From assembly GCF_032854445.1 (NCBI RefSeq), contig NC_088300.1, forward strand, positions 19,511,608 through 19,575,607: a stretch of 64,000 bases of DNA, in the 5' to 3' direction. This document shows, one piece after another, positions 25,301 through 64,000 of this stretch. The notes beneath the pieces were generated by a model. It searched no databases. It worked only from the letters and a program-made list of their open reading frames with translations, and was not told the origin of the DNA. Within the stretch, counting starts at the first letter, position 1; every line of letters starts with the position of its first letter. A program made the translations under genes and the position numbers. Source of the DNA: Liolophura sinensis. Lineage: Eukaryota; Mollusca; Polyplacophora; Chitonida; Chitonidae.

Positions 25301-28300
25301 CGCGGTGACCCCGAAATCGTGCACTAGGCAAGAAATGGCAGGCGAGGTGATAGCGAGACGTACCGGTTGATTGATGCCAAAATGCCGCGTCCAAAGACGA
25401 CTAGAGTTAGCCATAACAAAAAAGCATCAACGTATAGATCCGGCCGATTAAACAGCACAGAGGACCTGAAAAATCCACAAAAAATAACAGATTTTTTTGG
25501 CGGTAGTGGTCGAAAAAAGGCAAGGATTTCAGAAGCAAATGAAACACGTGACGGCATCGATAGTGAGGGAAGTGCTGCAGAGCCAGAGGTGCCGGAGTCG
25601 GGCGTGCTGATATCCCCTAGCCCCGAACCGGCGTCGGCAAGCACCAGCGAAACACCAAGCACTTCTAAACTTCACACCCAAGAAAACTTGGAAAATATAC
25701 AGGAAAATGTCGACAGCGATAGGCCTTCAACACCAGAACAAACCGAGCCTTTAGACTATAGCACAACGGAGGGCAAAAGATTTGACGGACGAACAAACAG
25801 GGACGGTCAATCACAGGCCCAGTGGGAAAAAATGTTTTCTTGTCTTTATTACAGTCATGACCAACAAGGTTGGAAGTGCAAATTATGTGAGGAATATGCT
25901 GTAACAGGTGACGAGACATGGAAAAATAAAGCAGTTAAACTAGAAGGCCATCCAAAAAGGGTTTTAGAAAATCACAGCCGTGGCAGTAAACACCAGAATG
26001 CCATTACTCAGAAAAGAGCTATACAAGCCATGGTTTCCAAGGGAAATATAACACAGCAGATAACGAGTTCTTTGGCAAAACAAAAACAAACAGAACAAGC
26101 CCGAAATCAGAGAGTAGTCGAAAAATTGATAAAATCAACATACTTCATTGCTAAGAAAAAGTGGGCAGTAAAACAGAACTTTCAAGAATTTGTGAATTTT
26201 ATTGCAAATTTGGGAGAGGAAGACTTACGATGGCATTGCCAATCTAGTGCTAAAAACGCCACATACTTGTCATCTACAAGCGTTGAGGAATTTCTGTGTG
26301 CGATAAACTGTTGTTTAGAGACAGATCTTCTCGATAAGCTGGCCTGTTGCTCTGGCTTTACCATCTTAGCAGACGAAAGCACAGATGAAAAAGATCGAGA
26401 ACAACTCACCATCTTCATCAGGTACGTGGACAGAATAACACACAAGGTTAGTGAAGAATATTTATCAATTGTTCAAATCAAGGCTGATAAAACAGCTGGG
26501 TCGCTTTTCACTGAGGTGATGGGCGTTTTAAAACAGAAAGGACTTGAACCGAAAGAAATTCGATTTACTGGGTTTGATGGGAACAAACACAATGTCTGGT
26601 GAAAAAAACGGACTTCAGAGAAGAATTAGGGACATATCCCCTCACGCAATATACCAGAATTGCAGAAATCACAAACTGGCTTTAGTATTCGTACACTTAA
26701 TGAAGAAATTCCCATTACTTCAGCAGCTGGACAAAGTATTGCTCACAGTTTGGAAACTTTTCAAACACTCAACTATCAAGTTCGCCGTTTTTGAAGAAGC
26801 ACAGGCTGTTGAAGGCCTCACGCCTGTTAAAATTTTGAAGGCTTGCACAACACGGTGGCTGAGTCACGGAGAAGCATGTGTGAGGATATTGTCACGCTGG
26901 GACTGTTTGCTGGATTCTCTTGACACTCTGTTCGCTAATCGAGGCGAACCTGAAGTAAAGGGCTGTAGAGATCAGCTTATTGAAGTGTGCTTGATGGCAG
27001 TTTTACTCGCCGACGTGCTGATCGCCATAAATCAGTTCTCTAAGTTTCTTCAGAGAAAGAACCTGGATTTCACATCTATTCCGGCAAGATTTCAAAAACT
27101 GAAATTAGCTATTTCAGAGCTTTCTGCAAATTTGGATCTAGGCAAATACTTTTCACAAGCAAGAAAATTTGTGGAAAAGAACAAGACAAGAGCAGAGATG
27201 GGGAGACGCCTCAGACGAGAAGACAGCTTTCTTGATCACGATCAGTCTGTTACAGAAACTGTGGAACAATTCAAACAAACTGTAGCAAGACCATTTTTGC
27301 ACAGTCTTCTACAAGAATTGGAGGATGCCATATCAATCAACAACCCTGTGTTAAAACATTTTGATGTGTTTAATCCTTCACTCAAGCCTCAAGTTAGTGA
27401 CAGGCTTGCTCACTTGGATGCTCTCATTGAGTTTTATGGTGACACACAGTTGGATACTCACGGGGGTGAAACAAACACTTCCTATCCTTTAATTAATAGG
27501 CAGGAAGCAGTTGGAGAGAGGTCAGATTTTCTACAAGAATTTGATCAGGCTTACGAAACTTGTTGCTACGATTTCAGGACAGAAGTTGCTAAGATGGTCC
27601 GAGAAAAGAAAATCAAAAAGATGGACACCAGTGACTACATTGACAGTCATCCCATGGAATCTGCCTCAGTTTATCAGCAAATGTGTGCTTCTGGGAGCTT
27701 AACTACCACAAAGCACTGTATGAAATTGTTTGAATTGGCACTACTAATCCCGCCTTCCACAGCAAACGTAGAAAGAGGTTTTTCTGCCATGAACCTCATT
27801 TGCAGCTCACTGAGAGCCTCACTCAACCAAACAAGCTTGGATCGTTTCATGAGAATAAACCTGAATGGCCCTGACAGCCTTTCAGAATCATACGTGAAAA
27901 GAATAGCGGAGAAATGGGCTTCAATGAAAGATCGTAGGATCCTGCCTTGCTGAATCATAATGTGCTAATTTTCATTTGAAAAGATGAACTTGGTGAGTTA
28001 ATACACAATTTGTTTGAGACTTTTTGCACATTATGGTTCTGAATGTATCTATTATGTGCATGTCTGACATACTGATAGTTATCAAGTCAATACATAAGAA
28101 ATAGAATGTTTACTATAATGAGCAAGTAAATGAACTCAAAGCAGTGCTTGGGTGAAAGTCAAGGTACATTGTGCATGCACTTGTTTATTTACAACAACAA
28201 ACCTGCTGACATATATGTGATGGTATGTGTTATAAATTAAAACCCGAGGGTCTGCGACAAAATGCACTGTTTCATTATTTGTCACATGTATGTATGTCAC

Positions 28301-40300: not shown

Positions 40301-43300
40301 ACAATCTAATGAACTACATACTCATATCTTTACTTTCCTAAAAGGCTGGTAAAGAAATGTAATATTCTACCTTCAACACCACTAATATCTGTCCCAAATT
40401 TTAGAAGAATTGGGGTATACTGAAATGGCTATTAGTGGTCACACCTTCTGAGAAAGTTCACATCTCAGAAGTTCAGCAGCATATATTGGTAATTAAGTGG
40501 CTGCTCCAGTAAACAAAATTATAAAAATATATTTTTTGAAGAAATATTCCAATGAATTGCTGTTCACTCAGTGTAATATAAAAAGTGGTAGAAATATATC
40601 TTAGAACTATAGGAATAACAAAGCGAAAGCCCATCAAAAAGGGCTCATTAGTTGTCATTCAGTCTCCTTTGCATACTGAGATTCAAATAAAGCTTTAAAG
40701 GTCTAAATAACTGGTAAATTGTAATCTGCCTTAACCAAGATCTTCCTTGGGCTAAGAGAAAAAAAGATGATGGACTTCAATAGTTTATGTATAGGAGGAG
40801 CAATGTAAGCATGATACAAAGCAAAAAATTTAATTAGTACAGCATGAATGTCTATCAAATAAGTAAATGAATAAGTTGAAAAGTCCTGGGAGAATAATTT
40901 ACAGCTTTTTGAAACAGAGAATTATGAGTCTCCTCTGTAATTCATCATGTGAGTAAGATAAATTGCTACTCATTGTTTCTTTATGTTCTTTGAGAACTAG
41001 GATGGTGCTGTTTGAAAAAAGAAATAAAAATGAACTTTAGCTGTCTGGAAGTATCTTCCATTGGTGGGGAAAACTTTTAAAGGGACCTGAAACTACAAAA
41101 TTTTAGTTTTTATTTTGTAGATTATTTATTTATATAAGTTTTAAACTTGTAATGGTGAATAGGTGTTTTTATGCTATTAACAACAAAGGAAGTGATATCA
41201 GTACACTCAAAAAAACCTGTGTTGCTTGAATTGATATGCTTCACTGCAGTTATATCTGTGAAAGAGAATATAAAAACAGTAATTAAAAGAGTAAGGGTAT
41301 CTTCAAATGCACCCCTTTAAACTCCTAGTGGTATGTAAGGTCATTAATAATAATAATAATGAAGTTGAGGCATCGCCTTTTGCATTTACATGGTGATGCC
41401 TCGACTTCAGTATTATTGTTATCTTCAAATACTGTAGTTTCTAGATCTTCCAGATTTTTGTCCAGTTGGCATCTTAAAATACATGTATATGTTTTATTTC
41501 ATGGAGATTGCAGTGCAGTTTCTTTTTGTGTTGTTTTGTGTTATGTTTGCCTTACATTATGTAACACTGTGTGTAAATATTGGCTTTGGAGTGAAAACTG
41601 TGTGACTTGTTCTAAAATCTGTAATACTGAACAGGATTGTCAAACTCCAGGGTGTCCTCACAAGTGGCTTGAAGGAGAGCAGATAATCTCTATTTCTCTC
41701 AAGCAAACTTCCCTCTGCCCATGACCAGTATTAACCACATACTTGCGTCAGTTAAGTGGCCTCCCTTCGTGGCTAAAGAGTATTCTCTGCCTCAGTTCAG
41801 ACGAACTGGTAGTAATGAATTAGGTCATTTGTTCAAATCCAGCTCAAGGTGATTTTGCGACAGCCATTTAGTGGGAGGTTCGTCATGCACCTGTACCTGG
41901 CTAGGTGTGTTGCTTTTCTCAAGCCATAAACTTGACTGCAGTCATAGAGGTGAAAGTCTGTTCAACATGGTACAAATCACTCTTAAAGTAAAGAAACTGT
42001 ATTTAAATGTCTTTGATCAATAGAGTTTAAATACCTGTTCATGTGAAGTAGCTAGTGGTGTTGGGGGTCATACTGCATGGTGTGACTGTAGATTTCCTTC
42101 CCTCCCCTCAGCTGCCAGCAGTGCCCTAATGTCCCTAGTGTCTGGAAACAAACAGCCCCGCATTGTGGCCAGGGTGAGCGCCATGAAACAGTACCAGAAA
42201 GAATGGCTAGAGTAAGTATGATACTGGCAATGTGTTTCTGAATTACAGTGAATTACCAAGTAATATTTGTTCAGAATGAGAATCCAATGTTGTAGACCGG
42301 CCCGGATAGCATAGTTGGTAGAGCGTCCGCTTCGGGACCGGTAGATCCAGGATCAATCCTTGATCGAGTCACACCTAAGACTTTAAAAGAGGAAGTTGTA
42401 ACTTCCTCGCTTGGCGTTCAGCATGAAGGGGATAGTGCAACGACTGGTTGACCCGTATCAGTATAATGGCTCGGGCGGGGCGGCTTACTTGCCTTTGGTA
42501 AGTCGTCTCAGTGAAGCAGCACTAAATAAAAGAGCGGTGGAAATGGCGTCCTGCAACAAGGAGGCACATTACACGTACATGCACCCTAATGATTCCTGCG
42601 TCGTCATATGACTGAAAAATTGTTGAGTACGACGTTAAACCCCAAGCACTCACTCACTCACTCCAATGTTGTAATTTTTGGGTAGTGAGTTGTTTGTATT
42701 TATTTAATTGGTGTTTTATGCCGTATTTTGTTTCCAAGTGGAAAAGTTGCTTGTCTTTCAGTTGCTGGGACACACAAGGCGCAGATTTAAACTGTGCCTT
42801 GAACAGGCAATTGGTAAATTCCCTAACTCTCACCGTTTCTGAGATCTTGGGTGACAGTAAGTGGTAGATGCTAGTCTGACCATTGAATACCGTCTTCCAC
42901 CAGTATGGTGTGTATATCTCTGGGCCTGACCATTGAAGACCGTCTTCCACCGGTATGGTGTGTATATCTCAGGGTCAGACCATTGAAGACCGTCTTCCAC
43001 CGGTATGGTGTGCATATCTCTGGGCCTGAACATTGAAGACTGTCTTCCACCAGTATGGTGTGTATATCTCTGGGCCTGACCATTGAAGACCGTCTTCCAC
43101 CAGTATGGTGTGTATATCTGTGGGTCTGACCATTGAAGACCGTCTTCCACCGGTATGGTGTGTATATCTCTGGGCCTGACCATTGAAGACCGTCTTCCAC
43201 CAGTATGGTGTGTATATCTCTGGGCCTGACCGTTGAAGACCGTCTTCTACCGGTATGGTGTGTATATCTCAGGGTCTGACCATTGAAGACCGTCTTCCAG

Positions 43301-46300
43301 CGGTATGGTGTGTATATCTGTGGGTCTGACCATTGAAGACCGTCTTCCACCAGTATGGTGTGTATATCTCTGGGCCTGACCATTGAAGACCGTCTTCCAC
43401 CAGTATGGTGTGTACATCTCTGGGCCTGACCATTGAAGACCGTCTTCCACCAGTATGGTGTGTACATCTCTGGGCCTGACCATTGAAGACCGTCTTCCAC
43501 CAGTATGGTGTGTATATCTCTGGGCCTGACCATTGAAGACCGTCTTCCACCAGTATGGTGTGTATATCTCTTGGTGTGACCATTGAAGACTGTCTTCCAC
43601 CAGTATGGTGTGTATATCTGTGGGTCTGACAATTGAAGACCGTCTTCCACCAGTATGGTGTGTATATCTCTTGGTGTGACCATTGAAGACCGTCTTCCAC
43701 CGGTATGGTGTGTATATCTCAGGGTCAGACCATTGAAGACCGTCTTCCACCGGTATGGTGTGCATATCTCTGGGCCTGAACATTGAAGACTGTCTTCCAC
43801 CAGTATGGTGTGTATATCTCTGGGTCTGACCATTGAAGACCGTCTTCCACCAGTATGGTGTGTACATATCTGGGTCTGACCATTGAAGACCGTCTTCCAC
43901 CAGTATGGTGTGTACATCTCTGGGCCTGAACATTGAAGACTGTCTTCCACCAGTATGGTGTGTATATCTCTTGGTGTGACCATTGAAGACTGTCTTCCAC
44001 CAGTATGGTGTGTATATCTGTGGGTCTGACCATTGAAGACCGTCTTCCACCGGTATGGTGTGTATACCTCTGGGTCTGACCATTGAAGACCGTCTTCCAC
44101 CAGTATGGTGTGTATATCTCAGGGTCTGACCATTGAAGGCCGTCTTCCACCAGTATGGTGTGTATATCTGTGGGCCTGACCATTGAAGACCGTCTTCCAC
44201 CAGTATGGTGTGTATATCTCTGGGCCTGACCATTGAAGACCGTCTTCCACCAGTATGGTGTGTATATCTGTGGGTCTGACCATTGAAGACCGTCTTCTAC
44301 CAGTATGGTGTGTATATCTGTGGGTCTGACCATTGAAGACCGTCTTCTACCAGTATGGTGTGTATATCTCTGGGCCTGACCATTGAAGACCGTCTTCCAC
44401 CAGTATGGTGTGTATATCTGTGGGTCTGACCATTGAAGACCGTCTTCCACCAGTATGGTGTGTATATCTCTGGGTCTGACCATTGAAGACCGTCTTCCAC
44501 CAGTATGGTGTGTATATCTCTGGGCCTGACCATTGAAGACCGTCTTCCACCAGTATGGTGTGTACATCTCTGGGCCTGACCATTGAAGACCGTCTTCCAC
44601 CAGTATGGTGTGTATATCTCAGGGTCTGACCATTGAAGACTGTCTTCCACCAGTATGGTGTGTATATCTGTGGGCCTGACTATTGAAGACCGTCTTCCAC
44701 CAGTATGGTGTGTACATATCTGGGTCTGACCATTGAAGACCGTCTTCCACCAGTATGGTGTGTACATCTCTGGGCCTGACCATTGAAGACTGTCTTCCAC
44801 CAGTATGGTGTGTATATCTCTTGGTGTGACCATTGAAGACCGTCTTCTACCAGTATGGTGTGTATATCTCTGGGCCTGACCATTGAAGACCGTCTTCCAC
44901 CAGTATGGTGTGTATATCTCTGGGTCTGACCATTGAAGACCGTCTTCCACCAGTATGGTGTGTATATCTCTGGGTCTGACCATTGAAGACCGTCTTCCAC
45001 CAGTATGGTGTGTATATCTCTGGGCCTGACCATTTGAAGACCGTCTTCCACCAGTATGGTGTGTACATCTCTGGGCCTGACCATTGAAGACTGTCTTCCA
45101 CCAGTATGGTGTGTATATCTGTGGGTCTGACCATTGAAGACTGTCTTCCACCAGTATGGTGTGTATATCTGTGGGCCTGACTATTGAAGACCGTCTTCCA
45201 CCAGTATGGTGTGTACATATCTGGGTCTGACCATTGAAGACCGTCTTCCACCAGTATGGTGTGTACATCTCTGGGCCTGACCATTGAAGACTGTCTTCCA
45301 CCAGTATGGTGTGTATATCTCTTGGTGTGACCATTGAAGACTGTCTTCCACCAGTATGGTGTGTATATCTGTGGGTCTGACCATTGAAGACCGTCTTCCA
45401 CCGGTATGGTGTGTATATCTCAGGGTCTGACCATACCGTCTTCCACCAGTATGGTGTGTATATCTCTGGGCCTGACCATTGAAGACCGTCTTCCACCAGT
45501 ATGGTGTGTATATCTCAGGGTCTGACCATTGAAGACCGTCTTCCACCAGTATGGTGTGTATACCTCTGGGTCTGACCATTGAAGACCGTCTTCCACCAGA
45601 CGAGTATGGTGTGTTTATCTCTTGGTCACTCCTGGGAAATTTCGCCAGTAACTTGCCAGAGATTGTGGTTTATGATAGGCACTCTGGGATCATCACCCAT
45701 AAAATTGACAGTTGAAGTAAAAACATTTTGAGTATGCTATTCTTATATAAAGTTTGTTAAAGATCAGTTTTCTTCCACCAAGTTGGATATAACAGAAGTC
45801 TGTGTGTCGCATGTAGTGTACTCGTGGGCCCTCCAACTTCCTCCACCCATTCACCAGACTGCCATTGTATAAGTGAAATATTCTGGAATATAGCATTAAA
45901 CATGACTGATAAAGAATTAGTCCTTGCAATAGGTAAAGTGATTTGTAGTGGGTGAAAGTCTACGTCTCATGATTAGTCTGTATAAGATGCTAATTTAGTT
46001 GTTTCCTTCTGGGTTGCTTTTGGCATTATAGGACATTGCCTGACACGATCATTGGGAGCACCTGTTTGCTGAATTTCTACGCCTACTACAGACATTTGCT
46101 GGCTGATAACCTGATCAGGGAGAGAATTGACCTGGATTCAACAGGTATGCAACATAATACATTACACTTTAACAATCTTTTGTTTGTCTGCCAAATCATG
46201 GCAGTAACCGTTTTCTTTTTTAGCAACAAATGAACAACATTCCAAAGAAAAGAATATTTTCTGCTGTATTAGTTAACCAAGAGATGCATGGTGATGACTT

Positions 46301-52599: not shown

Positions 52600-52735
52600 T
52601 GATGGTCGAGTGGTCTAGACGGTTGACATGTATTGCTGGCGGCTTGGTGCTTGACTCTGAGGTAGCTGGTTCGAAACCCCCAGTGGCCTCAGTCAAATTT
52701 CAGCACTAGAATCTGTGCTATATTCAGAAAGTGTA
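52600..52735 (+). mobile_element. tRNA-Leu-like SINE, family 4
   Basis: A box TGGTCGAGTGGTCTAGACG and B box GGTTCGAAACCCCC, with a long variable-arm-like middle (GGCGGCTTGGTGCTTGACTC), as in type II tRNAs. The downstream part contains CACTAGAATCTGTGCTATAT. A second copy lies on the other strand at 62,960-63,100. Confidence 0.65.
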
Positions 52736-54509: not shown

Positions 54510-55057
54510 AAAGTAGATGATTAAACTGGAAGCTTTTGTAATTGGTGTCATGCTGGTAGATTCTGTGAGAATTATCTGGCAGATACTCAAAGGGACAACA
54601 TGTCTAGGAGTACTGCTAGTCTTCTGTTAGTTATTAACCTTAAACAAAAGCATAATCAGGACGTCCCGTGAACAATATGCTGACTGCAGCACGTAATCCA
54701 AGCTGAAACATCCATCTCGGTGTTAACAATTTACCAGAAGGATTTGGGAGGGGAGGTGGTTACGGATCCGACCCCCAGCAGTGTCCAGGTGAGATTCATC
54801 CACGCCATCCAGCTGAACCGAAATTCTCAGACTGTCTAGTGATGCTAACTAAACCCGTGAGAGCCTGAAAATTCGACAGGGGTCCTGATGAGATATGACG
54901 TCATTATACAAATTCCATGTTTCAAGATGCTGTAGACAGTATACAGTAGACATGCACTATATACGTTGGATCGTGTTATGCAAGTCAGAATACTGCTAAC
55001 TGTTCCAGGTGACGCAACGACTTCATCTGACATTGACCCTGTCGGGCCATTGTGACT
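54510..55057 (+). promoter_or_regulatory. promoter region of cluster copy A
   Basis: A G-rich block (TTTGGGAGGGGAGGTGG, 54,744-54,760) is followed by CCGACCCCCAGCAGTGTCC and, 136 bp further on, a perfect CRE TGACGTCA (54,896-54,903) joined to TTATACAAA. About 400 bp of this flank matches the flank of copy C (63,530-63,960), including AATCCAAGCTGAA and CCCCAGCAGTG. Full CREs bind CREB/ATF bZIP factors (established knowledge). Confidence 0.65.
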
Positions 55058-55663
55058 ATGGATCATTTCACACCTTTACACGTCGATACCAACACAGAAT
55101 ATATTTTGGACATGGCCAAATTCCCACAACTAACCGACACCTTAAACTATTTGGAAGCAGCTCTGGTGATTGATACATACAGTTATCTACCTTGGGATCT
55201 TGCTCAGATGAGTCTGGATATGATGTCATCCTCAGATTTGTTACTGGTCAGGAGCCATGAAGGACTTTTCGACCTCATTGGTGCGTTGATTACTTTATTT
55301 CTTGGTTTCCAAAATACTTTATCAATTTCCATCTGTAATTTATCAAGACTACCTTCTATTTCCACACAAAGACCTCTTGTTCCTATTCCATCAATCATGT
55401 ATGTATGTATATACATGTACACGGTTTATAGAGCGTAGTGGGATTTTAAAGGCACATCCGATTTTCATTTCATTCTTTAAGGGTAGAGAACAGTTCATAT
55501 TGAACATATCAGAGTTTATAATGATCACTTCGATATTTTCATTTTCGTGGCAGACACTTATGGCATTGGAGATCTACGTGATGCGGATTTGAATGTGGGA
55601 TTAGTGGATTTGCAGCCTTCCAAACCGCGGAGTCTGCTTGAATCCAGTGTTGAGGCGGAATGA
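55058..55663 (+). pseudogene. cluster copy A: shortened, decayed paralog
   Basis: Exon 1 is 55058-55280 and exon 2 is 55554-55663 (stop TGA), phases joined, 110 residues. Exon 1 matches copy B closely (HFTPLHVDTNTEYILDMAKF, LTDTLNYLEAALVID, FDLIG). Exon 2 begins DTYGIGDL like B's DIYAIHDL but stops after 36 residues, before the degron and basic regions. The start ATG used in B is altered here (ATTGACC at the same place), so the first ATG is 11 codons later. A remnant of the lost C-terminus (RRFKRKIRAHV) lies downstream at 55,770-55,832 in an open frame that ends in TAG. It could be a decayed gene or one making a short product. No known family was recognised. Confidence 0.6.
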
Positions 55664-55769
55664 CACGTGACATGAAATTGAGTGCTGACTACAGCGTGTC
55701 CGCATGATGAGTCTGGTAATATTTTAAACAAAAAACCAAAAAACAAAAAACACGAGCTGTGTTTCCAGG

Positions 55770-55832
55770 GAGATGACCAGGCGATTCAAGAGGAAAATAC
55801 GTGCACATGTCACGTCTGAGAATACACAGTAG
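55770..55832 (+). pseudogene. detached C-terminal remnant of copy A
   Basis: The frame REMTRRFKRKIRAHVTSEN, ending in TAG at 55,830, lines up with the C-terminal basic end of copy B (YKRRKIRVSDDRDL). It follows an AG that could serve as a splice acceptor (TGTTTCCAG, 55,760-55,768), so a third exon is conceivable. The stop in exon 2 and the A-rich filler between argue for decay. Confidence 0.45.
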
Positions 55833-58800
55833 CAGGCCAATTGGCGCGCTCGTGCAGCTTCAATAACAATTAATGTGACACAGCAGAGTTTTGGAGCCAC
55901 AGGAAAGGACGTGCTGTTGGAATTGTATAGCCTGACCAACCTTCTCTTCACCCCGGCTTTCGTCAGTCACTTGCTGAGTTGTTTTGTGTCAGAAAATCAA
56001 GCAGGCTTTAAAAGAGAACAATGAATCGCAACTCTTGATATGTAAAGTGCTTTATACATGGGTTTTATTATTCATTCTTGCGAAAACATGTTTTTCAAAG
56101 TGCTTATATGCATGTTTAATAGATGTATTTATAAACTGTTGCAATAAATTTAATTTATCTGGAATTGTTTGGTTCATTCATAACGCGATTTTTCTAACAA
56201 TTTCCCTGAAAAAAAATCATGCAAATCGATTTGCGACATTTCTCGCGTCAAATCAAAGCGGGATAGTTCGCGGATGGACGCCATTTTATACAAATTACCG
56301 ATATTTATTACAGAGATTATCGTAACAAGTATAAGTATAGGGTAATCAACAATTTCAATTACTTGCAGAACGTTCAACTCTCTCAGGTGTGGACGCAGCC
56401 AAGGCCGATTTCTCTTTGTCCCAATCACTCAATGCATTCATTGATAGGGATTGTGTTTTGATAATTACTCAGTGTATGATTGAATCTTGTCGTTAATTAT
56501 ATATCACCTTAGTTACCATGCACTTCAGGCCTGCGCAATGAGGTGTAAATAAATCTTCAAAAGACATCCAAGGACGAGGACGCCAAACCCAAGCAAGTCA
56601 ATCAGTTGGGAAGTCATGCTGACGGATATGGATAATGTAAGAACATCGCTAATATTGGTCGGATTTAGGTTATTACAACGAAAGGAATAAGCCACAGGTG
56701 GAATCAAGGGTCAAATATATAGAGGTAGTCCTGTTCCATACATGAACCCGCCGCTAAGTGCTCTGTAACAAAACAATTTGTAATAAAAACGCAACTTACA
56801 ATAATTATTACAAAAAGGAACTCCAAAAGTGTTTTTTTTTAATAAATTATTACAAATTTGTCACTCCAAGAGTGGCTTTTTGTAATAACTTATTCCTTTC
56901 AATAATTTATTACAAATTGCCACTACCAGAGTTACTTTGTGTAAAAACTTATTCCTAGCAAGAATTTATTGCAAACTGCATTGTTACAGTGCTCCGAGTA
57001 ACGACTGTGGGAAACAAACAATATTAAGTGTAAAGTGCATACACATGCACAGCGAATCATAGCGAAAGTATTATAATCTGAACTGTGTACTATAAACGTA
57101 TGAACGTTTCAATGGGTGTCCTGTGCATGTCGTATGATAACCGTAGTGGAGTAATAACCATGTCATTTGTAACTTCTAGCCGTAATCTGAGCATTAATCT
57201 GACCTTTACACTGACTACACAAAACATAGAAAAAAAAATTACGACACCCTTCTTACTTACATTTTCCTTAGCGCGTTTTTATAAGTATATTTGTTTGTTT
57301 GCGTAATTAAAGAAGTTCGATTTGAGCGACGTGACTTACGTAATACTAATCCAACAATGAATCATTCATATCGGGTTTAACATCCCAACATCTGCGTTCG
57401 AACGTGTTCCTGTTGTAAAAAACATACTGCCATGGTGCATGCAATTTTGAACAGTTTCGACACATTTGCATGCCAGAAGCACTGGGATTGTCCTTAGCCT
57501 ATGTGATCATTCACATCCTGAGAGAATCACACATACAGAAGCTTTGACAATCATAAAGCAAGCCGAGGGCTAGTGCATGCTGAGTGTTCACAAATAACTT
57601 ATTTTTTTACAAATCCTGTTTGCTGTTTGCATATCAGGTATTTGTTTTACATTTTCACAAGCTAATTAACAAGCTTTTCATATATCATATCACAAAGGTT
57701 TTAGAAATTCAGGATTCCCTTTTTTCATGCAAATCCCAACAACTATTTTACATTTTGGGGTTCATTTACATTTTCTGTCTATTTAACATTTTTGGGTTGT
57801 GCAAAGTTGCTATTCTATCTTGTCGATGGGATTGCTGGTCAAGCACAAATAGCCTTCATTGACTATGGTAGTTTATAGAATCATTTGTATTTACCCTCCC
57901 ACAATGGCTCATATGGCTTCAGTAATTTTTTCACACAGGTATGATTTATTTTCAAAGCATTGACATGCTGTGCTTTAGTACCATTTGAAGCCAGCAAGCA
58001 AAATTATGCATTTACAATGTCTTCGTTAAGGAGTAACATATAGTACGATGTATGTGATGTTATACCCACGGTTCCACATTTATAGTAACTTACATAGGCT
58101 ATATCTTGGGCAACATACATTGCGAGACGCAAAATCTGTCCGGATTAAGCACGCGTAGATACATGCACAACATTCTGAACAATTCACACAAAATCCGAGT
58201 AGCTCCGTCTAAAAATTAAGAGGCGTCTACCTGTGTGAGACACTTAAATTAAGAAAAAAAAAGGTGCGTGAAGAAGAAAGAAAACAGATACATCATACTA
58301 TATGCTGCCAGTGAGCCGTATCTCCCAAAATATCACACATTAAACTGGTAAAGAATTTTATACAGTATTCACCAAAGACATTGTAAGTGAGATCGTGTGG
58401 TGGTTGATGTAAATGTACATTATACGTCACAGGTTACTGTGTTATGCATTCTGTTGTAAAATGCCCAGAGTCAAATTAGACAGATTACCACCTATTTTTA
58501 AAACCCAACTCACAATAAATCTGAACTGTGGATTTGCCGAGGCTAAACCTGTTCAGGAACGTGGAAGCCAAGCCGTCTTGGTAAACAATGTCGAATAGGT
58601 AAACAAAGCACACAGTGAAAACAACATCAGCACGATAATGGCATATGTATTTTGTTAACAGATGGGTTTAGGTAAAAGGGGCTTCTGTACAGGAACAAGC
58701 TGCTGATGGAACCAGGCTGCTCAGGGTGAGAATGGTCACGCTATTTGCAATAAACTGGGTGGTGGCTTAACCCCCACCCCTCCTTGCTCTCGATCCCTCC

Positions 58801-59200
58801 CCGTCGTTGATCTGTTCTGAAACGACCTTATAATCCCTAAGCTTATTAGAAGATTAGAAGCACTTCCGTCACTGTAGAATGTGATAACACTTTTTACCAG
58901 GACTTCCCCAGGACATGGGTGTATACGAATAACGAAAACATATATATTTAGTCTAAAAATTATTTTCAAGAGCCCTTTTCTCTTTCAAGAAAAATCGAAA
59001 ACATATAGAAGACCACATTGACAACTAACTTTTCGCACTGTTTCATTTGTACTTTATGTAATTTTCAAGTTTTCTCCACCTTTAAGATTTGTAAATGTTG
59101 TTTTTGCATAGGATGTTACTGTAAGAAGTAAATAAGTTTGCCAAATCTGAAGCTACTTGACAATGGACACGCATTTGCTTACGTCTAAATAAACGCAAAT
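55833..59200. other. spacer between cluster copies A and B
   Basis: I see no gene here. The region around 56,440-56,510 (TTTTGATAATTACTCAGTGTA) resembles 62,055-62,090 downstream of copy B, so the duplicated unit includes 3' flank. The inverted-repeat element at 56,756-56,998 is the other recognisable item. Open frames here are short and have no family features. Confidence 0.5.
56756..56998. mobile_element. MITE-like element with internal ~67-bp repeats
   Basis: The ends are inverted: GCTCTGTAACAA at the left and, read inward from the right, GCACTGTAACAA (11 of 12). Inside, a block of TTATTACAAATTTGTCACTC then GAGTGGCTTTTTGTAATAAC recurs about three times. The inverted ACAAA/TTTGT pieces make it self-complementary. 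It is AT-rich with no real coding capacity. Confidence 0.55.
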
Positions 59201-59216
59201 TGACCTTTGAAGTATC

Positions 59217-59503
59217 CGTCATACTGTGAGAACGGCTGGGGTGGCACAGGAGAACTTTTTGTTTGGGTGGGGGTGTTTGGAATAACCCCCACCCCCAGCC
59301 GGGTTCGGACCACAGCTGACAGTTACCTGACGACTCACCTCCCCCTAAATCTACTCTTACGTTCCACTGAACTAATCAAAGAAATGCAACACCGCAGGTG
59401 ATCTGAGTAAACCATGACGTCATCTGCTATATAAGGTGATAAGCTTTGTACCTAAGTCAGAAATTTCTGTTAACAGAACACGACCACTTCACATATCCAT
59501 ACC
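59217..59503 (+). promoter_or_regulatory. promoter of cluster copy B: G-hairpin, CRE, TATA
   Basis: A perfect 10-bp inverted pair GGGTGGGGGT/ACCCCCACCC (59,265-59,274 and 59,285-59,294) forms a G/C-rich hairpin. Then come a full CRE TGACGTCA at 59,415-59,422 and a TATA box TATATAAG at 59,428-59,435, 69 bp before the ATG. That spacing puts transcription start near 59,460 and gives a short 5' UTR. Confidence 0.8.
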
Positions 59504-60308
59504 ATGGACTTCCCCTTACCCATACGGTCCGTGACGACTGTGGATTATTTCACACCTTTGCACGTGGACACCAACATAGAGTACACTTTGGACATGGAGA
59601 AATTCCCTGAGCTAACTGACCCCTTACATTATTGGAAGCCAGCTCTGGTGATTGACTCACACAGTTATTCCCCTTGTGACATGTCTTTTGCGGTCCAGGA
59701 AGTGACGTCATCTTCACTTGATTTGGCGATGAGTGAGAACCATGAAGAACTTCTTGATCTCATAGGTGTGTACAAACGTAATAAAATATGTAGGTTATGG
59801 CAGCCAAACATTATGTATGATCATTTTCCATAATTGCTTTTTTTTTTTCGGAACTAGTACAAACATGAGATACAAATGTGTGTACATGTATGATAAATGT
59901 GTACAATGCATGCCCGATTTAAGCCAGTTATGTTAATTCAACTATCTATTTGTTACAGACATTTATGCCATTCATGACCTACAAGGAGACGATCTGGATT
60001 TTGGATTCGTAGATTTAGCGCCCTCAAGTTCACAGACTGTGTTGGCAACCACAGGAATTTACCAGGAAAGCCCTCTCACCTGTCCAAGCGTTGACTCTGT
60101 TATGTCCTCACCGGATATGGATGACTCGGGTTTTGTGAGTGAAACAGACGAGGACGTCGATCACCAGAGCATTCCTGCGGAGACTGTCCTCCCTTGTCAA
60201 GAAACAAGACGTGGACGCAAGAGGAGGCGATGTGCGCCAGCAAGCATAGAACACATCACAGTGTACAAGAGACGGAAGATAAGGGTCAGCGATGACAGAG
60301 ATCTTTGA
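59504..60308 (+). CDS. cluster copy B: intact acidic/basic nuclear-type protein
   Basis: Exon 1 is 59504-59765 and exon 2 is 59959-60308 (TGA), split in phase 1, 203 residues. No known family was recognised. The first 165 residues are acidic and rich in aromatic and hydrophobic residues (VDYFTPLHVD, LDMEKFPEL, DLQGDDLDFGFVDL), in the style of an activation domain. DSGFVS (143-148) exactly fits the beta-TrCP phosphodegron DSG-hydrophobic-x-S and is followed by ETDEDVD. The C-terminus has two basic clusters, RRGRKRRR (171-178) and KRRKIR (191-196), likely nuclear localisation and possibly nucleic-acid binding. There is no signal peptide or membrane span. The start is supported by the TATA box 69 bp upstream, and AATAAA follows the stop by about 100 bp. 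It is the intact member of a tandem array. I infer a short-lived, cAMP/stress-inducible nuclear regulator, and this is untested. Confidence 0.8.
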
Positions 60309-60411
60309 TGGCCAGACACTGTCCCTCCAACCTTCTTGAATTTGGCTCACGAGATTGCAGAAGGCAGCTTCTCCTGTTTCAATATGAGAAAGACTTTAAG
60401 TGAGAACCTTC

Positions 60412-60417
60412 AATAAA
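60412..60417 (+). terminator. polyadenylation signal of copy B
   Basis: AATAAA lies about 100 bp after the stop codon. Together with the TATA box it makes copy B a compact unit of about 1 kb. Confidence 0.7.
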
Positions 60418-60439
60418 AACTCTTCATTATTTAAAATAT

Positions 60440-63400
60440 ATAAAAGTGCTATACATCAGGGACCAGTACAAACAAATATTACTTTATTTATATGTGCTAT
60501 TACAAATGTCCTTTTTTGGCAAAGGATGATTTCATGTGGCAATCTTTTAAATGTAGTGCTGTGTAAGCGCTCTGATAACAAGAGCGACGTTGTGTTACTG
60601 ATTAAAATGGAAGTTTTTTTCATGAAAATCAATACTTTGGAGTTATGGATGTGCTGTTCTGATCGACATTTATTTACATGGGATAAGATCGTTGACAATG
60701 TGTTCTTGTTTTTGGCGTGGTTCGAGCTCATTTTGGCAATGTGAGCAATATGTGCAACTGAGCGTTGACCTCATCAGCTAAAACGGTAAGACCAATTAGT
60801 ATTAATTGGTGGCTCTCTGTCCATAATTACTGAGGGTAGAAGAATGTTGTCTGAGGCGTGGGTAAGGTCAATGCACAAATCAGAATGGAGAAACTCAAAA
60901 AGTACAGCGATGGAATTTACGAGACCATCTTGGTACAAGCAGCTAGCGATGCTGTGAAATCAAACGGAGCATCGTCGTTAATGGCAAAGGACAGTTCGGG
61001 AGTTCAGAATAACCATCAAATTCAAAGGTCTACTTGAGGGAACAAAGCATATGTTAAATCGGTGGTAATCTAATGGAAAGTGGGGGTCTGAGTGAGACAT
61101 TTCATCATAGACATTGCATTCCACCCCTCCACAACTGCTGTTAAAGCCGTCTGGACAGAAGCAACTTAAAGCAAAGTTAAAACGAGCTTAAACTTCACAA
61201 AGAGTGTGACTAATAAGCATACCGTCGGTTTAGCGCTGCACGTTGTCCAACTCTTCGTGGAGAGTCTGCAATACGGCAACAATGCCAACAAGTTGAAACG
61301 CTGAATTCTGGCAAGTGCACATAACTTGGCACCAGATCAGCACTTTGTCTCAATTAATTCATCTCCTGAATTTATAGAATAAGTGTTCAGTATTGGATTG
61401 ATTGAACGCTATCGGGGATGTATGTGTATTAGGTTTGTGTAGATTTGAAGCTTCAGAAAACAACGATAGAATGAGGACACCACGAGCAGCAGACCAAACT
61501 CTTAACGCCGTTTTCAAGTATAAGGAAACAATGATGGGAAGAGCAAATTAAGTCACACTGAGAGGATTCACCCACTGAGTAAAGATGGGTTGAATAATGT
61601 CTTCGGTCGATTGTGTATGTTTCAGTGAAGCAAATGGAGATGGTAGTTATTCCACCCGCCCCGCCCACCCATGCAAACCCGACACTCATTGGTATCATGG
61701 AAGTAGAATGAGAGTCGCGCATACGGTGATGGGTATATTTATTATATGTACTTCTAATTTGCTATACAGCAACTTCAAAACATTTGTGGTAAGAGTATTA
61801 TGATGTTTATTGATATCATACTATACCGCTTACCAAAGTTTATCCCATTTTTTTTAACACTTTCCTTAGTACTCCTGGGACACCAAACGTGTATTAAATC
61901 GTTTAAAACCAGTGAGAATTATTTTTTATTTATGGAAATAGTAGACTATTATCACAAAGAAGGGGTTAAATATTCATACTTAATAATTTTATAGTCAATT
62001 AACAATATAAACAATTGATGCAACGTTGGATGAAAAGGGTGGCGGACTGGTGTGTTGATTATTGCTCAGTGTATAATCGAAGTGGCCATTGTCTTCACTA
62101 TCAGTGAGGTTGTGACATTAATCAAATGTACAGAATGATTGACAAGGTAAAGAACCGTGGGGTGGACGCTGAACTCAACAGGCTGTGAAACCGTCTTGTC
62201 ATGAGTAGGACAGTATTGTTGAGTCGTAAGAATAACTGAACCAACAAGGCACCGCTAGTACAACCCACTGTGTACATGTCTCAAACAATCTTTTGCAATG
62301 GAGGTCGTGTCAAACCATGATCGACTTAAAACTCAAATTATCAACATTTGCATACCGTAGTGTTAAGGCTCTTTGTACAAATACATATGTATGCTTAATA
62401 CTTTGCTTTTGTATGACTACATTTATTGTTATTGTTTTTTAATATTCGCATACTGGCGTCTTTTTCTGTCGAATTGCTAACGATATTATACATTTTGTTC
62501 TGTAAGTTTTGACGCCTTAGAATTAAGCTATACTCAAAATAACAGCTCTTACTCTATGTTGTGCATAGTCAAGTCGAAATATAAGCAAAAAAAAATGAAA
62601 TCAACAAATTATTAAAATATTTAGAATATACTTTTCAAATGTGTAGCTGAAATAGGTTATAATAATGTGTTCTCTCATGTATAGTTTCAGCATAAATTAT
62701 AAAATGAACAACCCAAAATAATTCCACGCACATTGTACTTTATTTGTATACAGATTTGTTATACAATACAGTGATTTGTGATATCAAACGTGGCTATCTT
62801 CATAATTGTCTTGTTAAAGGGGCGATGCGTAAGAAACAAATCCAATGTTTTAATGGGGTTATCATCCGGTATCGCTTGGAATGAGGAGATGGCAAAAGTG
62901 TGGGCGTTGGTGATCCATAATTTTCAAATGTAAAGGTTTGTTTGAAGATCTTATTACGATATTGTGGTTAATGGATATAGCACAGAATCTAGATGAATAT
63001 TGGCCACTCCGAGTTTCGAACAAGCGACCTCAGAGTGAGGCACCAAATCGCCAGCAATACATTTCAGTCGTCTAGACCACGTAACCAAGAGGCTTTACGG
63101 CGAACATGTATCATCCCTCTGATGGAGCTCCCTAAGCTGGACAGATAAGACAGGTAGATGCCATTTAGAAAGTATTATCATTATCAGGGAATACACTTTG
63201 TGGATCTTAATACAGACTTCAGTCGCCTCCTGGGTACAGGTAAACTGACATGGTATTATCAGCTAAATGGTCAGTCGGTACAAGTCAGTATTTGTCCATT
63301 CAACCTATTATGTAACCAGAAACAATATAACACACTTTCTCCAAGGCGACTGAGATTAGTTTCATAGCCTTACATCAGCTTAATCTCTCCCATCTCCGTT

Positions 63401-63520
63401 TTAGCAGACTGCAGAAAAATGCGCCATTCATGACTAACGGATATATTAAATTTATGTCCGAGGGTGTTTCAGGTATGGTATTCATCACTGTCAAAATGAT
63501 AAATGCAAACCGACAATGGG
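60440..63520. other. spacer between cluster copies B and C
   Basis: I see no gene here. It contains a stretch near 60,954-60,985 (TGAAATCAAACGGAGCATC) that matches 52,560-52,590 upstream of copy A, and the minus-strand SINE at 62,960-63,100. The remainder is anonymous. Confidence 0.45.
62960..63100 (-). mobile_element. tRNA-Leu-like SINE, family 4, minus strand
   Basis: Read on the minus strand: GTGGTCTAGACGACTGAAAT, TATTGCTGGCGATTTGGTGC, B box TGTTCGAAACTC, then ATTCTGTGCTATAT. It is the second copy of the family seen at 52,600. Confidence 0.65.
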
Positions 63521-63529
63521 CTCATTAAG

Positions 63530-64000
63530 CCACAAGCGTTGGTAATTGATGTCATGTGGATATAGTTTAATAATTATGTGACAGACACACAAAGAACAAG
63601 CGTGTCAAAAACAGTCCTGTCGGCGTTGTAGTCATTGTTTTCCATTAAGAACGCCATAAACAAAACCGCCATCGAGAAATTCGGTGCCAATGGTGGAAGT
63701 TATAATCCAAGCTGAACCACCCATCAGGGTATTAACACTTTATGAGAAGAGTTGGGGGAGTTGGGGAGGGTGGGGTGGGGGTGGTTGTATACCAATCCAG
63801 CCCCAGCAGTGCTCCTATGAGAACTATCCACACCAGATAAATGAAAAGAAATCTCGTCACTGTCCTGATATGTTGATTAGCTAGACCACAGCGAGCCTGG
63901 AGCAGTGCAGGTGTTCTATTGAGTCATGACGTCATCATACAAAGGCCACAATTCACCTGATTAATAGTTCTATAGACTTTCCTCTATCCGTCGCGAATGT
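63530..64000 (+). promoter_or_regulatory. promoter region of cluster copy C (gene beyond window)
   Basis: It matches the flank of copy A: TATAATCCAAGCTGAACC (63,702 onward), a G-rich block at about 63,754-63,784, CCAGCCCCAGCAGTGCTCC, and a perfect CRE TGACGTCA at 63,927-63,934 followed by TCATACAAA. By analogy with A (CRE to ATG 162 bp) and B (89 bp), the start codon of copy C should lie at or just past the window end. Confidence 0.65.

What the first reader, a model, noticed from the sequence alone, without database searches (positions are those of the whole stretch)
54510..64000. Tandem cluster of an unrecognised two-exon gene family (A decayed, B intact, C cut by the window edge)
Copies A (ATG 55,058) and B (ATG 59,504) share exon structure, intron phase 1 at the same residue and clear protein similarity in exon 1 and early exon 2. 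Copy C is predicted from a homologous promoter at 63.5-64.0 kb. The spacing of about 4.4-4.5 kb is regular. I know of no named family with this layout, so this is the best candidate for an undescribed system in the window.
Basis: partly seen in the sequence, partly recalled or inferred. Interest (0 to 1): 0.82.

Follow-up and report, generated by a model that had tools for sequence, protein, structure and literature searches.

The report
Undescribed chiton nuclear-protein gene family
The window holds two members of a real gene family that has no name in the databases we could search: a chiton carries at least 17 intact copies, most in one 180,000-base cluster, and they look like small, switchable nuclear proteins that help control other genes, though that job is only inferred.

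Summary
Copy B is an intact two-exon gene (203 aa). Copy A shares its exon 1, phase-1 intron and early exon 2 but is truncated. Copy C is not where it was predicted: the promoter-like stretch at 63.5-63.9 kb is an orphan relic, and the next real copy starts 2,069 bases beyond the window and is broken. The spacing is not regular. The genome is that of the chiton Liolophura sinensis (published as L. japonica). It holds at least 17 intact copies: 12 within C6:19.487-19.667 Mb and 5 on C1, C5 and C9. All 17 have a phase-1 intron. Six broken copies were also seen. In the 10 copies tested, exon 1 is under purifying selection and exon 2 evolves faster. Of 11 copies scanned, none reached a Pfam cut-off, and an exon-1 profile matched no PDB chain; eukaryotic proteomes could not be searched. 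Best reading: a birth-and-death family of small nuclear co-regulators, with an LxxLL-like motif at the end of exon 1 (12 of 17), a two-part basic cluster in exon 2 (12 of 17) and, in part of the window's subfamily, a CRE-TATA promoter and a degron-like motif. The family is secure; the function is inferred.

The parts
54896..54903 (+). CRE palindrome TGACGTCA upstream of copy A
   Evidence: the DNA search
55058..55280 (+). Copy A exon 1 (MDHFTPLHVDT..., ends in phase 1)
   Evidence: alignment with B, C, D
55554..55663 (+). Copy A exon 2, stops after 36 codons; lacks the basic region of most intact copies
   Evidence: end coordinate counted by hand
59415..59422 (+). CRE palindrome TGACGTCA, starting 89 nt before the ATG of copy B
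59428..59433 (+). TATA box (TATATA) of copy B, starting 76 nt before the ATG
59504..59765 (+). Copy B exon 1: conserved module (PLHVDTNIEYTLDMEKFPEL...PALVI) ending in LLDLI
59766..59958 (+). Copy B phase-1 intron, 193 nt
59959..60308 (+). Copy B exon 2 with stop codon; acidic first half, basic C-terminal part
60123..60140 (+). DSGFVS, a DSGxxS phosphodegron-like motif in copy B (present in 4 of 17 intact copies)
   Evidence: coordinates counted by hand
60207..60275 (+). Two-part basic cluster (RRGRKRRR...YKRR), predicted nuclear localisation signal
   Evidence: coordinates counted by hand
60412..60417 (+). AATAAA, polyadenylation-signal-like, after copy B
   Evidence: read from the sequence
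63534..63943 (+). Relic matching the upstream region of copy A in two pieces (63,534-63,594 and 63,703-63,943; CRE at 63,927-63,934); no related coding stretch in the next 2 kb

Best explanation
Copies A and B belong to an undescribed family of two-exon genes in the chiton Liolophura sinensis, expanded by local duplication into a cluster with at least 12 intact copies, plus 5 intact copies elsewhere. Exon 1 encodes a conserved module of about 45 residues (roughly P-L-x-V-[DE]-T-x3-Y-T-[LI]-x4-F-P-x-L...P-[AST]-L-x-[IL]) and, in 12 of 17 copies, ends in L-x-x-[LI]-[LI] right at a phase-1 intron. Exon 2 is a faster-evolving tail that in 12 of 17 copies carries a two-part basic cluster. I propose that these are small, mostly disordered nuclear co-regulators. 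In this model a signal-responsive CRE-TATA promoter switches on at least some of the window's subfamily, the basic cluster carries the protein into the nucleus, the exon-1 module and the LxxLL-like helix dock onto transcription factors or coactivators, and in some copies a DSGxxS motif lets the protein be destroyed quickly. Shown: the family, gene structure, motifs and selection. Inferred: disorder, nuclear location, partners, inducibility and turnover.
For: 17 of 17 intact models share a phase-1 intron. Distant members are supported by genome-wide E-values: Q to U 1.0e-7, Q to S 2.5e-5, Q to R 5.7e-4; U to V 1.2e-4; the one shuffled control (Q) gave a best match of E 1.53. dN/dS is 0.17-0.37 in exon 1 for 21 of 21 pairs among 10 copies, upper 95% bound under 1 for 19 of 21. 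L..[LI][LI] forms the end of exon 1 in 12 of 17 copies (no shuffle control was run for it); a two-part basic cluster is in exon 2 of 12 of 17, each seen in at most 42 of 1000 shuffles of that tail; DSGxxS is in 4 of 17. TGACGTCA: 5 in the window against 0.87 expected, 0 of 100 shuffles reaching 5, and 4 of the 5 lie at 54.9-63.9 kb; it stands just before a TATA box in B, F and G.
Against: No recognised domain supports a transcriptional role: 11 of 17 copies scanned in Pfam, exon-1 profile against PDB. M, Q, S, T1 and V lack the two-part basic cluster; F, G, S, U and V lack the strict LxxL[LI] pattern (F and G have ILDLI); exact LxxLL is in only 5 of 17. The exact CRE was found upstream of only 3 of 17 intact copies, in flanks of 124-230 nt. 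One of the four CREs in the region is inside exon 1 of B and one is in the orphan relic. Exon 1 is acidic in the window's subfamily but not in U, which is basic. The copies are related, so motif counts are not independent. In exon 2 the 95% bound of dN/dS reaches 1 or more in 8 of 21 pairs. The only fold prediction, on two sequences, was uninformative (mean pLDDT 48.2); no disorder predictor was run. No transcript or protein evidence was available.
Confidence: 0.45

Rival explanations
1. The family is real, but the proteins are small disordered inhibitors or adaptors (for example of a kinase, cell-cycle enzyme or ubiquitin ligase) rather than transcriptional co-regulators. The basic cluster is a nuclear signal and the exon-1 module is a docking peptide for an enzyme.
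For: Short proteins without a recognised domain in the 11 of 17 copies scanned, with a basic tail in 12 of 17, fit disordered inhibitors as well. The tail layout is loosely like that of p21-type inhibitors (recalled, not tested).
Against: No CDK-inhibitor match in those Pfam scans at E <= 10. The LxxL[LI] position at the exon junction in 12 of 17 copies fits transcription partners somewhat better, but does not exclude this rival.
Confidence: 0.25
2. The genes are relics of a longer transcription factor (for example an ETS or bZIP protein) that lost its DNA-binding exons and kept only the activation region.
For: LxxLL-like end of exon 1 and basic C-terminal part resemble the non-DNA-binding part of such factors.
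Against: No ETS, PNT, bZIP or other DNA-binding domain in the 11 of 17 copies scanned. All 17 models, the dispersed ones included, have the same two-exon layout and end in a stop codon. I did not search systematically for further exons downstream.
Confidence: 0.15
3. The copies are a multicopy mobile or viral element rather than host genes.
For: Many copies, several broken, close together.
Against: Copies keep an intron and upstream region, and sit in one local cluster plus five single loci rather than being scattered. No transposase-like Pfam match in the 11 members scanned. In viral contigs one peptide pattern gave 5 stretches, none confirmed. Terminal repeats and target-site duplications were not specifically searched for.
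Confidence: 0.04
4. The open frames are chance or dead sequence with no protein product.
For: 6 of the 23 countable copies are broken; no transcript data.
Against: Low dN/dS in exon 1 in 21 of 21 pairs tested and usable splice sites with long open frames in 17 models.
Confidence: 0.02

Closest known systems
LXXLL (NR-box) nuclear receptor coregulators
   Same: A short L-x-x-[LI]-[LI] motif at the end of exon 1 (12 of 17) in proteins that mostly have a predicted nuclear signal (12 of 17).
   Different: Exact LxxLL in only 5 of 17 copies (O, P, X, Q, R); no known coregulator domain in the copies scanned; receptor binding untested.
Beta-TrCP substrates such as I-kappa-B, beta-catenin and ATF4 (recalled)
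   Same: DSGxxS motif in B, D, F and G, followed by an acidic stretch.
   Different: 4 of 17 copies only; no ankyrin, armadillo or bZIP match in the Pfam scans of B and G; D and F were not scanned.
CRE-driven immediate-early genes of animals, such as Aplysia C/EBP and ICER (recalled)
   Same: Full CRE starting 13-17 nt upstream of a TATA box in B, F and G.
   Different: No bZIP match in the copies scanned; inducibility untested; 14 of 17 copies lack an exact CRE in the flank examined.
ETS proteins with a PNT/SAM domain (my first guess)
   Same: Superficially similar acidic-then-basic layout in the window's subfamily.
   Different: No PNT or ETS match in Pfam at E <= 10 in 11 of 17 copies scanned.

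Membership tests
Tandem birth-and-death gene family | Several homologous copies with the same exon structure close together, some broken | tested here: met
   12 intact and 6 broken copies within C6:19.487-19.667 Mb; 17 of 17 intact models with a phase-1 intron
Nuclear receptor (NR-box) coregulators | LXXLL motif | tested here: inconclusive
   L..[LI][LI] at the end of exon 1 in 12 of 17; exact LxxLL in 5 of 17
Nuclear receptor (NR-box) coregulators | Binding to a receptor ligand domain | not testable with these tools
   needs two-hybrid or pull-down
Nuclear proteins | Nuclear localisation signal | tested here: inconclusive
   two-part basic cluster (a pattern of my own) in 12 of 17, in at most 42 of 1000 shuffles; localisation itself not tested
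Beta-TrCP substrates | DSGxxS phosphodegron | tested here: inconclusive
   4 of 17 intact copies; phosphorylation and degradation not tested
CRE-driven immediate-early genes | CRE close to a TATA box | tested here: inconclusive
   exact in 3 of 17 (B, F, G); near-matches by eye in D, I, J
ETS/PNT transcription factors | PNT or ETS domain | tested here: not met
   no such Pfam match at E <= 10 in 11 of 17 copies scanned
bZIP (ATF4, C/EBP, ICER) | bZIP domain | tested here: not met
   no such Pfam match at E <= 10 in 11 of 17 copies scanned

The most novel reading that the evidence does not exclude
A chiton- or mollusc-specific family of signal-induced, short-lived nuclear co-regulators built on a new docking module (the exon-1 motif). 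Its constant module docks on one partner while the freely evolving exon-2 tails give each tandem copy a different output, so the cluster works as a diversified set of inducible adaptors for one transcription pathway.
Probability: 0.2. Interest if true: 0.62.

Novelty: new variant of a known kind. Interest (0 to 1): 0.42.

Why it matters
If the reading is right, it adds a protein family without a Pfam match that expanded in a molluscan lineage and looks like an inducible regulator, a kind of lineage-restricted regulatory gene often left as 'uncharacterised'. The constrained exon-1 module gives a concrete handle (a peptide of about 45 residues) for finding its partner, and the cluster, with young duplicates, a sign of gene conversion and dying copies, is a good place to watch such a family diversify. 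If it proves to be a lineage-specific family with a mundane role, it is still a missing annotation.

Tried and rejected
ETS/PNT origin: my first guess from the acidic-then-basic layout; rejected for lack of any such Pfam match in 11 of 17 copies. Weak Pfam matches (AATF-Che1 0.14 in R, Lep_receptor_Ig 0.15 in O, BNIP2 0.78 in M, GM130_C 0.16 in S, DUF4620 0.13 in V) are far below the curated cut-offs and differ from copy to copy; discarded as chance.

A's upstream region as a dispersed repeat: a genome search with 54,694-54,912 found only itself at E <= 0.001, although blastn with short words found related pieces at 63.5-63.9 kb and at L011 3.9-4.3 kb. So it looks local, not a common repeat.

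Structure: AlphaFold2 on exon 1 of B with A gave mean pLDDT 48.2, pTM 0.15. With two sequences this says nothing for or against disorder; no fold search was made.

Tree of 17 exon-1 proteins: 2 of 14 inner branches well supported (X/N/O/P together; O with P); deep order unresolved, with long branches.

Literature: four motif strings gave 0 papers. A search on chiton gene-family expansion held 605 papers, 10 listed; one on molluscan LXXLL coregulators held 33, 10 listed. In both I saw only titles and starts of abstracts, and none of those listed concerned this family. Other molluscs could not be searched.
Full report
What was checked. The finding describes two related two-exon genes, A and B, and predicts a third, C, at the right edge of the window. 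I translated and spliced A and B, searched the window's whole genome with B and with more distant members, read the DNA around the matches and built gene models. Parts of the cluster between the fetched pieces were covered by those genome searches only.

Where it is. The window is C6:19,511,608-19,575,607 of a 609,464,459-base assembly with 632 contigs. Three contig lengths (96,433,062, 37,343,639 and 19,479,325) and the number of scaffolds equal those printed for the chiton published as Liolophura japonica (PMC11068029, passages seen), which the authors have since corrected to L. sinensis (PMC12441733, whole text seen). The printed total, 609,495,693, is 31,234 bases larger than the one held here.

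Copy A and copy B. B reads as 87 codons, a 193-nt phase-1 intron with GT..AG ends, and 116 more codons including the split one, 203 aa in all. A uses the same intron position and phase. It lacks B's start codon, can start at a Met that aligns with the start of the chromosome-1 copy T1, and stops 36 codons into exon 2. Exon 1 of A against B has dN/dS 0.36, so constraint has acted over much of their divergence; A may be recently dead or a short protein.

Copy C. The 63.5-63.9 kb stretch matches A's upstream region and holds a CRE, but the next related exon starts 2,069 bases past the window. That copy has an upstream region that matches B's, an in-frame TAA in exon 1, and an exon 2 that ends in a repeat-like sequence also seen, by eye, inside exon 2 of copy H. 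Spacing along the cluster runs from 3.7 to 17.2 kb, leaving out the 58.5-kb gap between P and A.

The family. I count 17 intact models: X, N, O, P, B, D, F, G, I, J, M, Q on C6 and T1 (C1), R (C5), S, U, V (C9). Six broken copies (A, C, E, H, K, L) and four small fragments are also present. All 17 have a phase-1 intron at the end of exon 1. The distant members rest on genome-wide matches: with Q as query, U at 1.0e-7, S at 2.5e-5, R at 5.7e-4; with U as query, V at 1.2e-4. Q, S, U and V align from their first Met; R has about ten extra residues in front. One control, a shuffled Q, gave a single match at E 1.53. Counts are lower bounds because the search scores only the best candidates.

Selection. 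Ten of 17 copies were tested in two groups; M, Q, R, S, T1, U and V were left out as too divergent. By a Nei-Gojobori count, exon 1 dN/dS was 0.22-0.37 in 15 of 15 pairs of B, D, F, G, I, J and 0.17-0.32 in 6 of 6 pairs of X, N, O, P; the upper 95% bound was under 1 in 19 of 21 (not I-J or O-P, which are young pairs). Exon 2 was looser: 0.32-0.65 in 14 of 15 and 0.49-0.72 in 5 of 6, with F-G (1.66) and O-P (1.38) above 1 but with intervals that include 1; the bound reached 1 or more in 8 of 21 pairs. Pairs share branches and are not independent. So exon 1 is the more constant part and exon 2 the more variable. F and G are 98.5% identical in exon 2 but 93.8% in exon 1 (Fisher p 0.001), which suggests gene conversion.

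Motifs. L..[LI][LI] is the end of exon 1 in 12 of 17 copies (one residue earlier in R); F and G have ILDLI; S, U and V have none. A two-part basic cluster, by a pattern of my own, lies in exon 2 of 12 of 17 and in at most 42 of 1000 shuffles of each; M, Q, S, T1 and V lack it. DSGxxS is in B, D, F and G only. That these motifs mean coactivator docking, nuclear import and beta-TrCP turnover is from general knowledge, not from any call.

Promoters. TGACGTCA occurs 5 times in the window, 0.87 expected, 0 of 100 shuffles reaching 5; 4 of the 5 lie at 54.9-63.9 kb: before A, before B, inside exon 1 of B, and in the orphan relic. In B, F and G it starts 13-17 nt before a TATA box; D, I and J have near-matches by eye; N, O, P and X have AATAAATA instead; a TATA box was seen in 8 of 17 (B, D, F, G, I, J, M, S); the flanks examined were 124-230 nt. 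This fits cAMP- or stress-inducible transcription, which is untested.

Known families. None of the 11 members scanned (of 17) reached a Pfam cut-off, and the exon-1 profile matched no PDB chain at E <= 10. I could not search eukaryotic proteomes, so 'undescribed' means no Pfam match, no PDB match, and nothing seen in three literature searches of which two listings were capped at 10 papers.

Verdict. A real, sizeable and apparently undescribed gene family with a constant/variable design, most likely small inducible nuclear co-regulators. The existence of the family is secure; the function is a reasoned guess.

Noticed in passing
window 25,328-27,950 (+): Two overlapping long open frames that look like a hAT-type transposase (DUF4371 E 3.8e-7, 30.7 bits against a cut-off of 32.1; weak hAT dimerisation match E 0.053), apparently split by a frame change.
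   Followed up: partly
window 42,833-45,669 (-): Overlapping long open frames made of one tandem repeat ([13 protein letters not shown]... units), by eye a large minisatellite.
   Followed up: no
window 52,603-52,688 and 63,002-63,087: 86-nt inverted pair, 83% complementary; looks tRNA-derived (SINE-like) by eye.
   Followed up: no
window 56,805-56,947: 47-nt inverted repeat rich in TTATTACAAA, between A and B.
   Followed up: no
L015 6,258-7,166; L016 868-1,109, 4,375-5,293 and 8,768-9,012: Intact I plus broken L and intact J plus broken K look like a recent block duplication of about 8 kb (I-J exon 2 dS 0.018).
   Followed up: partly
L012 8,113-9,022 and L013 8,495-9,408: F and G are more alike in exon 2 than in exon 1 (p 0.001), a sign of gene conversion.
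   Followed up: yes
L017 5,138-5,673: Exon 2 of copy M found no convincing relative elsewhere in the genome although its exon 1 is B-like: a swapped or very fast tail.
   Followed up: partly
L011 3,895-4,296: Several pieces related to A's upstream region, about 105 nt apart in part, behind copy C.
   Followed up: no
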